From Synergistaceae bacterium (GTDB lineage: Bacteria > Synergistota > Synergistia > Synergistales > Synergistaceae), in assembly GCA_030533085.1 (NCBI GenBank), contig JAUNJZ010000013.1, forward strand, positions 1-59,050: DNA of 59,050 nucleotides. Direction: 5' to 3'. Positions 39,765 through 44,183 of this stretch are shown here, piece by piece. The translations under genes were made by a program, and so were the position numbers. The notes beneath the pieces are model-generated. The model was given only the letters and a program-made list of their open reading frames with translations, had not been told where the DNA came from and did no database searches. The first letter of the stretch is position 1. Each line of letters begins with the position of its first letter.

Positions 39765-40814
39765 ATGAAAATGGATCTTTCAAAAACGGCGGCCTACGAT
39801 TATGAGCTGCCAAAAGAGCTGATAGCGCAGGAACCGGCGGAACCTCGCGATTCCTCGCGGCTGCTTGTAGTTCACAGAGAAAGCGGCTGGAGCGAAGACC
39901 GGATATTCCGCGATATAGCTGAATACCTCCGCGCCGGCGACCTGCTTGTGCTCAACGACACGCGCGTCCTGCCGGCGCGCGTAGAGGGAATAAAAAAGGG
40001 CGGAGGCGGGGCGAAGGTGGAAATATTTTTCCTCAACCCCGGAGATACGCCGCGGCAATGGAACGCGCTCGTGCGCCCCGGACGCAAGCTGCCGGAGGGA
40101 ACGCGCGTCGCTCTGGACGAGCGGAACGAGGTAACAGTGGGGGCGCGCCTTGAAGACGGATTGCGCACTATAATATTCGCGCCGGAGAGCGACCCCTTTG
40201 AGCTGATACACAGATTCGGCGAAACGCCTCTGCCTCACTACATAACGAATACGCACGCCGACCCAGAGCGCTATCAGACCGTTTACGCCAGACGCGAAAA
40301 GGAAAATTCCGTGGCCGCCCCGACGGCCGGACTGCACTTCACCCCCGAACTGCTGAAAAAGCTCGATGAAAAGGGGGCGCGCCGCGCCTTCGTGACGTTA
40401 CAGGTTGGACTTGGCACATTCCGCCCCGTCAAAGCCGAAAATATACGCGACCACATCATGCACAGGGAAATCTGCGAAATACCGCCGGAGACGGCGGCGC
40501 TGATAAACGAGACCAAAAAGGAAAAGGGACGCGTCGTCGCCGTCGGAACGACGGTAGTGCGCACGCTGGAATCCTTCGCCGCGCAATACGGCGGAATAAT
40601 CCCCGGCTCTCTGGCGACAAGGCTCTTCATCAGCCCCGGCTATAAATTCCAGGTAACAGACGCGCTGATAACCAACTTCCACCTGCCGATGAGCACGCTG
40701 CTGATGCTGGTCTCCGCCTTCGGCGGCTACGAAACGATGATGCGCATATACAAAGAGGCGGTGGAGAAGCGCTACCGCTTCTTCTCCTTCGGCGATTCAA
40801 TGTTTATAGAATAA
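39765..40814 (+). CDS. queA: S-adenosylmethionine:tRNA ribosyltransferase-isomerase
   Basis: QueA transfers and isomerises the ribosyl moiety of SAM to preQ1-tRNA, forming epoxyqueuosine. The N-terminal YDYELPKELIAQEPAEPRDS and conserved LNDTRVLPAR, PLPHYI, APTAGLHFT and VVAVGTTVVRTLE motifs identify it; length 349. Here the gene begins with MKMDLSKTAAY right after the SpoIID-like stop. The DUF2905-spoIID-queA tail after ruvCAB is a familiar arrangement in Firmicutes and Synergistota. Confidence 0.95.
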   Translation: MKMDLSKTAAYDYELPKELIAQEPAEPRDSSRLLVVHRESGWSEDRIFRDIAEYLRAGDLLVLNDTRVLPARVEGIKKGGGGAKVEIFFLNPGDTPRQWNALVRPGRKLPEGTRVALDERNEVTVGARLEDGLRTIIFAPESDPFELIHRFGETPLPHYITNTHADPERYQTVYARREKENSVAAPTAGLHFTPELLKKLDEKGARRAFVTLQVGLGTFRPVKAENIRDHIMHREICEIPPETAALINETKKEKGRVVAVGTTVVRTLESFAAQYGGIIPGSLATRLFISPGYKFQVTDALITNFHLPMSTLLMLVSAFGGYETMMRIYKEAVEKRYRFFSFGDSMFIE

Positions 40815-40844: not shown

Positions 40845-40889
40845 GATTTATATTTTTTATGCCTAAAATTTGCATAAAAAATATAAATC
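40845..40889 (+). promoter_or_regulatory. 18-bp perfect inverted repeat in the promoter of the ATPase/RloB-like pair
   Basis: GATTTATATTTTTTATGC (40845-40862) and its exact complement (40872-40889) are separated by nine bases. The right arm contains the -35 element of the promoter at 40870-40898. It could be an operator for a dimeric repressor or a hairpin ending queA transcription; a terminator T-run does not follow on the plus strand. Confidence 0.85.
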
Positions 40890-40898
40890 TGTTATACT
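40870..40898 (+). promoter_or_regulatory. Sigma-70-type promoter of the ATPase/RloB-like pair
   Basis: TTGCAT (40870-40875) and TATACT (40893-40898) are separated by 17 bases. The predicted transcript starts near 40905, a few bases before the AGAGAGGTGAGA ribosome binding site, which argues that translation begins at ATG 40918. Confidence 0.7.
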
Positions 40899-40917: not shown

Positions 40918-42186
40918 ATGATTTTGGAATTCAGCATAGAAAATTTTCAGGTTTACAGTACCGAGGTTAAATTCAACCTGGAAGCGGATCTGAGAACAAA
41001 GAAATTCCGTTCCAATGTTATCGCTTCGCAGCAGGGAAATATCCTGAAAACAGCCGCCATTTACGGGCCGAATAATACCGGGAAAACATGTTTGATGAAC
41101 GCGTTCCGCGCATACCAGGCTGTACTGCTGAATAAGCCGATTAAATTCCGCTCAAACTTGTTTACTGATTCAGACGCTTTCAGCTTAGGCGCCGTTTTTT
41201 TATGGAACGGTAAAAGATATGAGTACTTTTTCCGGTACGACACAAAGTTAAGAATATTTATAGAAGAGGGCTTTTCGCATATCTATCTTGACAGATACGG
41301 AAACAAATCAAAAGAGCTGTTTTTCTATAGAAACACAGAAAATAAGAGCGCTGTCAGCGGTAGTGACAAACTTAAAGAGGCTATAAAACTTTCTTCTAAA
41401 GACAATATCCTGATAAACACACTGGACGCTGCTGAATTTCCTCTGTTACAGGAGGCGCGAGAGGCGCTAAAGGGTTTTGCCGAGAATGTCACAGTATTGT
41501 CAATGCAGTCGCTGCCGCCATATAAAACGATAGAAATGCTCAAAACCCCAGAAAGTCCAGAGGCAAAGCAAATCATCGAACTCATAAAAAAGTCCGATCT
41601 TGATATTGATGATTTTAAATATGACGAAAGATTTTCAGAAGGCGTTTTATTTGAGGCAGATGAAGAGACTGAAAGGGCTAGAGGACTCCAGCACCTCGAA
41701 AAGGCTGCGGATGTTTTTAAATTGACATCCATCCATAAAGGAAAGGCGCTGCCGAGTATAATTTTTGATTCGCTGGGCACAAAGAAAATAGTCTCGCTCG
41801 CAGGCTATCTGGTTGAATGCCTGAATAAAGGCGGCTGCCTGCTTATCGACGAACTGGACAGCGGCATTCACTTTAAACTTTCACGCGCTATAGTCTCTGT
41901 CTTCAACAGTTCACTGAACGACCGCGCACAAATGATTTTTTCAACGCATGACGCGAGCCTGCTTGATATAAAAACGCTCTTCCGCAAAGAACAGATATGG
42001 TTCACAGATAAGGTCGAGGATGAAGTGTATCTCTACTCGCTATCCGACTTTACGGCGGAAAATTCAGGCATACGCGCCGATTCGGATCTCTATGAACGCT
42101 ATGCAAAGGGATTTTTGGGGGCGCTGCCAGACCCTTCGTTGATAGATGTTCTTATAGACATACATGGCGGTGAACAAAATGAATAA
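40918..42186 (+). CDS. AAA ATPase of the AbiLi/RloA type (putative phage defence)
   Basis: This 422-residue cytoplasmic ATPase starts MILEFSIENFQ, typical of SMC-like/OLD-type ATPases in defence loci. Walker A GPNNTGKT lies near residue 48. DSLGTKKIVSLAGYL is the signature region of the RloA/AbiLi (AAA_15/AAA_21) group, followed by Walker B GGCLLIDELDSGIH and a switch His in STHDASLL. ATG 40918 is fixed by the promoter and ribosome binding site. The partner gene downstream is translationally coupled (overlapping ATG/stop) and RloB-like, as in AbiL and RloAB pairs. Lower GC than neighbours points to acquisition. Defence function is inferred, not shown. Confidence 0.75.
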   Translation: MILEFSIENFQVYSTEVKFNLEADLRTKKFRSNVIASQQGNILKTAAIYGPNNTGKTCLMNAFRAYQAVLLNKPIKFRSNLFTDSDAFSLGAVFLWNGKRYEYFFRYDTKLRIFIEEGFSHIYLDRYGNKSKELFFYRNTENKSAVSGSDKLKEAIKLSSKDNILINTLDAAEFPLLQEAREALKGFAENVTVLSMQSLPPYKTIEMLKTPESPEAKQIIELIKKSDLDIDDFKYDERFSEGVLFEADEETERARGLQHLEKAADVFKLTSIHKGKALPSIIFDSLGTKKIVSLAGYLVECLNKGGCLLIDELDSGIHFKLSRAIVSVFNSSLNDRAQMIFSTHDASLLDIKTLFRKEQIWFTDKVEDEVYLYSLSDFTAENSGIRADSDLYERYAKGFLGALPDPSLIDVLIDIHGGEQNE

Positions 42187-43081
42187 ATTTCCGCCGTTCT
42201 TGCAGCGCCAAAGATTTCGGCGCTCCGTATGTTTGATCCTTGAAGGATACGAGGAATATTATTATTTTAAGAAACTCCTGACTTTGGGTGTATTTTCTCC
42301 CGTTTACGATATCAGACTTATCAATGCGAAAAGCGCAAGCAGTATTCCTGCAAAATATCAGGATGCGCTTGCAGGCAACTCATATTCGATAGTTTTGATT
42401 GTCTGCGACAGGGATAGAAAACCGCAGGAATATCTCAGGATACTTCGTGGAATTGAAGATATCGTTGGAAACGGCAGGGGAGAAGAAATTATTACTTTTA
42501 CTCGTCCATGCACTTTACAGGTCATTTTATATCACTTTGGCGAAGCTGCATTGACAACTCAGGCAAAACGCGCAGCAAGAGCCGACGTGCTACGCCTGAC
42601 AGGCGTGGCGGATTACGACGCCCACCAGGCTCAGTTGAACGATATCTGTAGTAAAATACACCGTAAAAGCTGGGATGCCATGCGCGAACGCCTGAAACTA
42701 CTAAGCGCCAATCCAGATGATATACCGTCAAGCAACATGGGTTTGCTTTTTGAACGGTTATGCGCTGATGATTTTGCATGGATTGATGACTTGAATAAGA
42801 GCATTCTTGCGAGATATAACGAGGCGACTGAAATGCCGACAATAATGTACGGAACAAAAAACTGCCCAGACGTGCGCAGCTCGCTTGCGGAAACAGAGGC
42901 CGGAGGGCTGGATATAGAATTCAGAAGCTTTGACGGCAGCGTAACAAATCTTAAAGAATTCATCCGCCTGCGCGACAGCCGCGCGGAATTTGACGAGATA
43001 AAGAAAAACGGCCTGATTGGCATTCCCTGCTTCGTAACGGAAGAGGGAAAAATATGTTTTGATATCAGTGAAGTCAAATAA
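42179..43081 (+). CDS. RloB/AbiLii-like protein fused to a glutaredoxin-like domain
   Basis: Residues 1 to about 210 look like RloB, a TOPRIM-like nuclease fold: the acidic motif LEGYEEYYYFKKLL (EGxxExxxYF), VLIVCDRDRKP (DxD), and FTRPCTLQVILYHFGE, which recalls the PC-x-L-HF motif of RloB. Residues from about 219 on read as a glutaredoxin-like domain: MPTIMYGTKNCPDVR, NLKEFIRLRD, AEFDEIKKNGLIGIPCFVT. The CxxC site is CPDV, so only the first Cys remains; the cis-Pro segment GIPCF is kept. An internal ATG at 42833 with GAGG upstream could also yield the glutaredoxin part alone. ATG 42179 overlaps the ATPase stop; 42164 is a possible alternative. Confidence 0.65.
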   Translation: MNKFPPFLQRQRFRRSVCLILEGYEEYYYFKKLLTLGVFSPVYDIRLINAKSASSIPAKYQDALAGNSYSIVLIVCDRDRKPQEYLRILRGIEDIVGNGRGEEIITFTRPCTLQVILYHFGEAALTTQAKRAARADVLRLTGVADYDAHQAQLNDICSKIHRKSWDAMRERLKLLSANPDDIPSSNMGLLFERLCADDFAWIDDLNKSILARYNEATEMPTIMYGTKNCPDVRSSLAETEAGGLDIEFRSFDGSVTNLKEFIRLRDSRAEFDEIKKNGLIGIPCFVTEEGKICFDISEVK

Positions 43082-43121: not shown

Positions 43122-44183
43122 ATGCAACAGGAAGGAAGGAAGGAAGGAAGGAAGGAAAATTTTATTGAACTGGAGTTTGTTCGAGTAGCGGCATGTTTAA
43201 TGGTAATAGTATTACATGTAGCCGCGGCAAATTTCTATACCTTTGGCCCGCATTGGGCTGTCTCAAACACAATTCATAGCTTTGTCCGCAGCTGCGTTCC
43301 GCTGTTTTTCATGATAAGCGGCGCGCTTTTGTTAAAGAAAGGAGCGGCCGACGATCTCTCCTTTTTTATCAGAAAAAGATTTGTCAGGATTTTGCCATCG
43401 CTGATTTTCTGGTCTTCGCTGAGCTGTCTGGCATACGTCTGCTTAAAATCAGAACCTCCCGTATACTTCTTTTTAAGATTTTTTGGCACCAGCGGATTCT
43501 ACCATCTGTGGTATCTGTACGCTTTGGTTGGTCTCTATCTGCTGATACCGATAGTGGGAAAATGGTATGTCAACTCTTCCGGACGTGAGATAGCTTTCTT
43601 TCTGGCGGTATGGTTTGCGGCCTGTTCCTGTTCTACCGCTTCGTCGCTTGTCAGCGAGTTATCCGGAAGAAACGCTGACATGCTGAAGCTGTATAATATA
43701 TCGGAATTTGCAAGCTATATCGGCTTCTTCGTTCTCGGTACATTCCTCTTTGAAGAGAGAAACCGCTATCTGATTGAAAAAGTGAAGCCGCTTGCCGCGT
43801 TCCTCGTCTTTGTTATCTGCGGCCTGATGATTGCCGGAATGACCGCTGTCTATTCCGAATATATGTCCCAGCCCAATCAGTTGTTTTACAAATACAGATG
43901 TCCTTTGGTAATTATCGCGGCGGTATCCTTTTTTATTTTTTCAATGAGGCTGAAGTATAACAATACCAGAATAAATACTCTCATCGCTAAAATATCAAAA
44001 TACAGCTTTGGAATATACTGCGTTCACGCCTTCGTCCTATACAAAATACCCGTAAGCGAACTTTGCTCCATGACAGGCATTACATGGCTCACAATATTGT
44101 TGGTGAGTATCTTTGTATTCCTCGTTTCTCTGATGATCTCCGTGATATTAAAAAAATTGCCGCTTCTGTCGAAGGTCGTTTGA
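43122..44183 (+). CDS. Acyltransferase family 3 membrane protein with a phase-variation-type repeat
   Basis: Acyltransferase-3 proteins O-acetylate surface polysaccharides or related glycans. The N-terminal helix has ELEFVRVAACLMVIVLHVA with the catalytic-type His, followed by SCVPLFFMISGALLL and RKRFVRILPSL; about ten hydrophobic segments complete the 353 residues. The start at ATG 43122 has GCGAGGGA upstream. Codons 3-11 are made of seven AGGA units (encoding EGRK repeats), so gain or loss of one unit would shift the frame. The gene follows the RloB-like gene by 40 bases and ends in a strong terminator. Confidence 0.85.
   Translation: MQQEGRKEGRKENFIELEFVRVAACLMVIVLHVAAANFYTFGPHWAVSNTIHSFVRSCVPLFFMISGALLLKKGAADDLSFFIRKRFVRILPSLIFWSSLSCLAYVCLKSEPPVYFFLRFFGTSGFYHLWYLYALVGLYLLIPIVGKWYVNSSGREIAFFLAVWFAACSCSTASSLVSELSGRNADMLKLYNISEFASYIGFFVLGTFLFEERNRYLIEKVKPLAAFLVFVICGLMIAGMTAVYSEYMSQPNQLFYKYRCPLVIIAAVSFFIFSMRLKYNNTRINTLIAKISKYSFGIYCVHAFVLYKIPVSELCSMTGITWLTILLVSIFVFLVSLMISVILKKLPLLSKVV
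43129..43156 (+). repeat. Tetranucleotide repeat (AGGA)7 at the start of the acyltransferase gene
   Basis: Seven uninterrupted AGGA units lie within the first dozen codons. The unit length is not a multiple of three, so slipped-strand changes would switch the gene between full-length and truncated product, as in known contingency loci. Confidence 0.9.

What the first reader, a model, noticed from the sequence alone, without database searches (positions are those of the whole stretch)
42179..43081. Glutaredoxin-like domain fused to an RloB-like protein, with one active-site Cys and an internal start
Residues from about 219 on read as a glutaredoxin-related domain (MYGTKNCPDV, NLKEFIRLRD, KKNGLIGIPCF) joined in frame to the RloB-like part. 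I know of no described defence effector with this fusion. The second Cys of CPxC is Val, so it may be a monothiol or sensing domain. An internal ATG (42833) with GAGG eight bases upstream could yield the domain alone. A redox-gated effector would be new; this is inference.
Basis: partly seen in the sequence, partly recalled or inferred. Interest (0 to 1): 0.72.

Follow-up and report, generated by a model that had tools for sequence, protein, structure and literature searches.

The report
Defence gene joined to native glutaredoxin-like gene
A two-gene AbiL-type phage-defence module has landed between two neighbouring housekeeping genes and its last gene has no stop codon of its own, so the effector reads on into a small native glutaredoxin-like gene; the join is real in the sequence but looks like a by-product of the insertion rather than a new redox-controlled weapon.

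Summary
The 300-codon ORF (42179-43081) and its two parts are real, but they are two genes of different origin. Residues 1-210 are an RloB/AbiLii-type Toprim-like effector paired with an AbiLi ATPase (40918-42186). About 27 intact relatives all stop at the point matching window residues ~209-213, and none carries a Grx domain. Residues 219-300 match a separate ~80-aa glutaredoxin-like protein. In four genomes of the same family that gene stands alone, 12-19 nt after queA, in the conserved order ruvC-ruvA-ruvB-DUF2905-spoIID-queA-grx. In the window the low-GC AbiL module sits between queA and grx, and the effector's stop is missing. The internal ATG at 42833 is the native grx start, with a GAGG ribosome site at the native position. 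Val in CPDV is normal: all four queA-linked free copies have it. The Grx part evolves no faster than its free relatives. The chimera, seen in 1 of 188 genomes of the phylum, is most simply explained by insertion plus loss of a stop codon. A redox-gated effector is not excluded but has no positive support. A palindrome over the -35 box, conserved upstream of this AbiL subfamily, is a separate lead.

The parts
39765..40814 (+). queA, native gene on the left of the insertion
   Evidence: Pfam Queuosine_synth 7e-130; same gene order in four relatives
40845..40889 (+). Palindrome (18-bp arms, 9-nt loop) upstream of abiLi; core 40852-40882 conserved in the AbiL subfamily
40870..40898 (+). Promoter-like TTGCAT-17-TATACT overlapping the palindrome
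   Evidence: consensus match only
40918..42186 (+). AbiLi-type AAA ATPase
   Evidence: PADLOC AbiLi 6e-64; L042 64% identical
42179..42808 (+). RloB/AbiLii-type Toprim-like effector, complete to the usual C-terminus but without stop codon
   Evidence: PADLOC AbiLii 1e-7; ends of ~27 relatives; OLD/GajA Toprim fold
42809..42832 (+). Junction (ARYNEATE): former grx leader with GAGG ribosome site at 42821-42824, now read as linker
   Evidence: match to the queA-grx leader of G128
42833..43081 (+). Native glutaredoxin-like gene (CPDV), with its own start
   Evidence: free ORFs in 13 genomes, directly after queA in four; alignment

Best explanation
An AbiL-type two-gene phage-defence module (AbiLi ATPase plus AbiLii/RloB Toprim nuclease-like effector, with its own promoter) inserted between queA and a small native glutaredoxin-like gene. 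The effector's stop codon was lost at or after insertion, so it reads through the old queA-grx leader into grx. Shown by sequence: the module and native parts, where each ends, the missing stop, the native start and ribosome site. Inferred: ribosomes make an effector with a C-terminal Grx appendage behind a flexible linker, and also start at 42833 to make free Grx. Taken from the family: AbiLi senses infection and controls AbiLii, whose Toprim domain harms the cell, probably by cutting nucleic acid, and aborts infection. The Grx part most likely keeps its housekeeping thiol role and is roughly neutral for defence.
For: Free grx directly after queA in G138, G137, G127, G128. About 27 intact RloB relatives end at window residue ~209-213 and none has Grx. 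RloB part absent from the other 187 genomes of the phylum. Only one grx copy in the own genome. GC 58-60% in queA against 40-45% in the module. Module homology with L042 begins at the palindrome, 40852. Junction resembles the G128 leader (0.4% of random 20-mers as good; 3 of 115 ribosome-site leaders). Grx part keeps all invariant residues and is not faster-evolving. Model: confident to residue ~211, disordered linker after it.
Against: The junction resembles only one of four native leaders clearly. No empty site from the same genus is held. A target-site duplication could not be established (p 0.03 by shuffles, about 6% of control positions as good). No data on which proteins are made.
Confidence: 0.8

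Rival explanations
1. The fusion has been kept because the Grx domain gates, localises or stabilises the Toprim effector by thiol chemistry: a redox-gated defence effector.
For: The frame is open across the junction, and the Cys and all invariant Grx residues are retained.
Against: No second example in about 28 relatives or 188 genomes. Retention is equally expected if the only grx copy is still made from its own start. Val is not a special change.
Confidence: 0.05
2. Assembly or base-calling error hides a stop or frame shift in the 24-nt junction; the genome has two separate genes.
For: Draft genome in 76 contigs. The stop is due within a few codons of the junction, and a two-base change there (for example one TA step in GATATAAC) would restore a stop, AGA-TAA.
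Against: The protein aligns without gaps to its relatives up to residue ~209-210, so the error would have to lie in a very short stretch. Nothing in the sequence points to one.
Confidence: 0.13
3. The Grx segment is an ordinary part of this RloB subfamily.
For: None found.
Against: All intact relatives end before it, and the segment exists as a free gene elsewhere.
Confidence: 0.01

Closest known systems
AbiL (AbiLi/AbiLii) abortive-infection system of Lactococcus; RloB family PF13707
   Same: Two overlapping genes, AAA ATPase then RloB-type Toprim effector. F. nucleatum AbiLii is toxic to E. coli (PMC3985639).
   Different: Distant subfamily (RloB part 16-23% identical to the plasmid and phage examples); own palindromic promoter; effector runs into grx here.
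UXX-star glutaredoxin-like family 1 (NF041114; PMC13188914)
   Same: Small Grx-like protein with one active-site Cys/Sec and no second Cys; free relatives match the model.
   Different: The window copy scores 12.8 bits, far below the cut-off of 72; Cys, not Sec; CPDV.
PARIS, Gabija and OLD nucleases
   Same: ATPase plus Toprim logic; model matches OLD Z 10.2 and GajA Z 9.9. PMC10440598 relates RloB to OLD Toprim.
   Different: Different families by sequence; the Toprim part is a separate protein, unlike in GajA and OLD.

Membership tests
AbiL system | AbiLi-type AAA ATPase as first gene | tested here: met
   PADLOC AbiLi 6.3e-64
AbiL system | RloB/AbiLii-type second gene, overlapping the first | tested here: met
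   PADLOC AbiLii 1.1e-7, and 17 of 17 subfamily members match; start 42179 lies inside abiLi, which ends at 42186
AbiL system | Protection against phage | not testable with these tools
   needs an experiment
Pfam RloB PF13707 | Score above the gathering cut-off | tested here: not met
   16.3 bits against 31.5; relatives score better, best 1.4e-7
OLD-type Toprim | Conserved Glu and D-x-D motifs | tested here: met
   E22, D77 invariant and D79 nearly so in 17 relatives; all three invariant
OLD-type Toprim | Toprim fold | tested here: met
   VIA Z 10.2 to 6nk8, 9.9 to 8j4t; modest margin over lumazine synthase at 8.3
UXX-star family 1 (NF041114) | Score above the curated cut-off | tested here: not met
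   12.8 bits against 72
Glutaredoxin-like fold | Thioredoxin-like fold of the C-terminal part | tested here: inconclusive
   pLDDT 54 for the domain alone; homologues hit Pfam Glutaredoxin

The most novel reading that the evidence does not exclude
The chance fusion has been co-opted: the Cys of the native glutaredoxin-like domain controls or stabilises the AbiLii Toprim effector, giving a thiol-responsive abortive-infection protein, with free Grx as a second product of the internal start.
Probability: 0.05. Interest if true: 0.65.

Novelty: new member of a known kind. Interest (0 to 1): 0.3.

Why it matters
It is a clear example of how a moving defence module can fuse to a host gene simply by losing a stop codon, and a caution against reading every domain fusion in a defence gene as functional design. 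If the Grx tail did affect the effector, this would be a lineage-specific case in which to study how such control begins.

Tried and rejected
Grx as an ordinary part of RloB: rejected, no relative has it. Val as a fusion-specific loss of the second Cys: rejected, the queA-linked free copies all have CPDV and the others CPDT or CPKT. Decay or speeding-up of the Grx part after fusion: not seen. Target-site duplication of the queA end: suggestive only. Single-protein scans of genome contigs, IMG/VR, plasmids and phages with the RloB part found nothing; a two-row alignment was needed. Exact junction 27-mer in IMG/VR: none. Papers with both RloB and glutaredoxin: none in the held library. Structure of Grx alone: too poor to search with.

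Full report
Observation. The frame 42179-43081 is open across both parts. The RloB-like part scores as AbiLii in PADLOC (1e-7) and weakly as Pfam RloB (E 0.011, below the cut-off). The overlapping gene before it is a strong AbiLi ATPase (6e-64). The last 82 residues hit no Pfam model on their own, but they have clear relatives that do.

The Grx part is a native gene. A search of 188 genomes of the phylum found the 82-aa segment in 13 genomes; the 12 besides the window's own have it as short free reading frames, 84-123 codons where complete. In the four closest (G138, G137, G127, G128, same family) it lies directly after queA, in the order ruvC-ruvA-ruvB-DUF2905-spoIID-queA-grx, which is the order of the window apart from the AbiL module. 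The gap from queA stop to grx start is 12-19 nt and holds the ribosome site. All four free copies start at the Met equivalent to window 42833 and have C-P-D-V. The own genome holds no second copy.

The RloB part is a complete effector without Grx. A scan of species genomes gave 30 relatives. The best, L042 from a Peptococcaceae MAG, is 65% identical over window residues 1-210, with an AbiLi 64% identical beside it. About 27 intact relatives end within a few residues of the same place, typically W-I-D-x-I-N-x-x-L then stop; L042 ends WIDDINASILT-stop where the window reads WIDDLNKSIL-ARYNEATE-MPTIMYG. None has a Grx domain. One relative (L066) diverges early and runs on into unrelated residues; L069-L071 are partial or broken. 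Within the phylum the RloB part occurs only in this genome.

Junction. The 24 nt between residue 210 and the Grx Met hold GAGG at 42821-42824. The 20 nt before the Met resemble the queA-grx leader of G128 better than all but 0.4% of random 20-mers and all but 3 of 115 leaders with a ribosome site, though they do not clearly resemble the leaders of the other three. GC falls from 58-60% in queA to 40-45% in the module. This supports insertion of the module between queA and grx with loss of the effector's stop. A duplication of the queA end at the insertion is possible but not shown. How the stop was lost is open; a two-base step in GATATAAC is one simple route (inference).

Has the Grx part changed since? 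Its identity to free copies (53-63%) is no lower than among free copies (49-59%, apart from the close G127-G128 pair at 88%), and replacement changes are far fewer than silent ones (dN about 0.23, dS about 1.0 against G138, near saturation). All invariant family residues are kept. This is expected if the gene still works from its own start; it does not call for a role in defence. The age of the fusion is unknown, so much of this signal may predate it.

Structure. The model of the chimera is confident for residues about 12-210 (block means 85-97) and poor after that. The confident part matches OLD Toprim domains (Z 10.2) and GajA (Z 9.9), a modest margin above unrelated rows at about 8.3. The Grx part was not modelled well, with or without the rest; the alignment gave it no homologous rows. 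PMC10440598 also relates RloB to OLD Toprim domains.

How it works. Best reading: an AbiL-type abortive-infection pair under its own promoter, whose effector carries the Grx protein as an incidental tail; free Grx is probably also made from 42833. The steps from infection sensing to cell damage are taken from the family and not shown here.

Side finding. Upstream of abiLi a palindrome, consensus ATTTTTTATGCAAAAATATTGCATAAAAAAT, overlaps the -35 box at a nearly fixed distance from the -10 box. 23 of 28 subfamily members match at 25 or more of 31 positions, against a maximum of 22 in shuffled upstream regions; eight more distant AbiL operons lack it. The consensus was drawn from the same, related sequences, so the figure overstates independence, but its spread over Clostridia, Spirochaetes, a Haloplasmataceae bin and this genome makes an operator plausible.

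Noticed in passing
40845-40898; also upstream of abiLi in L031, L042-L053, L055, L058-L060, L062, L064, L065, L067, L068: Palindrome ATTTTTTATGCAAAAATATTGCATAAAAAAT over the -35 box, conserved in this AbiL subfamily and absent from eight distant AbiL operons: a likely operator with no known binder and no regulator gene in the operon.
   Followed up: partly
43129-43157: Perfect (AGGA)7.2 tract inside the first codons of an acyltransferase-3 gene (43122-44183): a candidate phase-variation switch.
   Followed up: partly
43122-44183: The acyltransferase gene has the low GC of the AbiL module (42-45%), and none of the downstream neighbours seen in the relatives matches it; the stretch right of grx may be a second insertion site.
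   Followed up: no
L042:4027-4671; L031:8494-9084: Recombinase-like ORFs (judged by eye, not by a family search) lie near the AbiL pair in these two relatives, so the module may travel with such elements.
   Followed up: no
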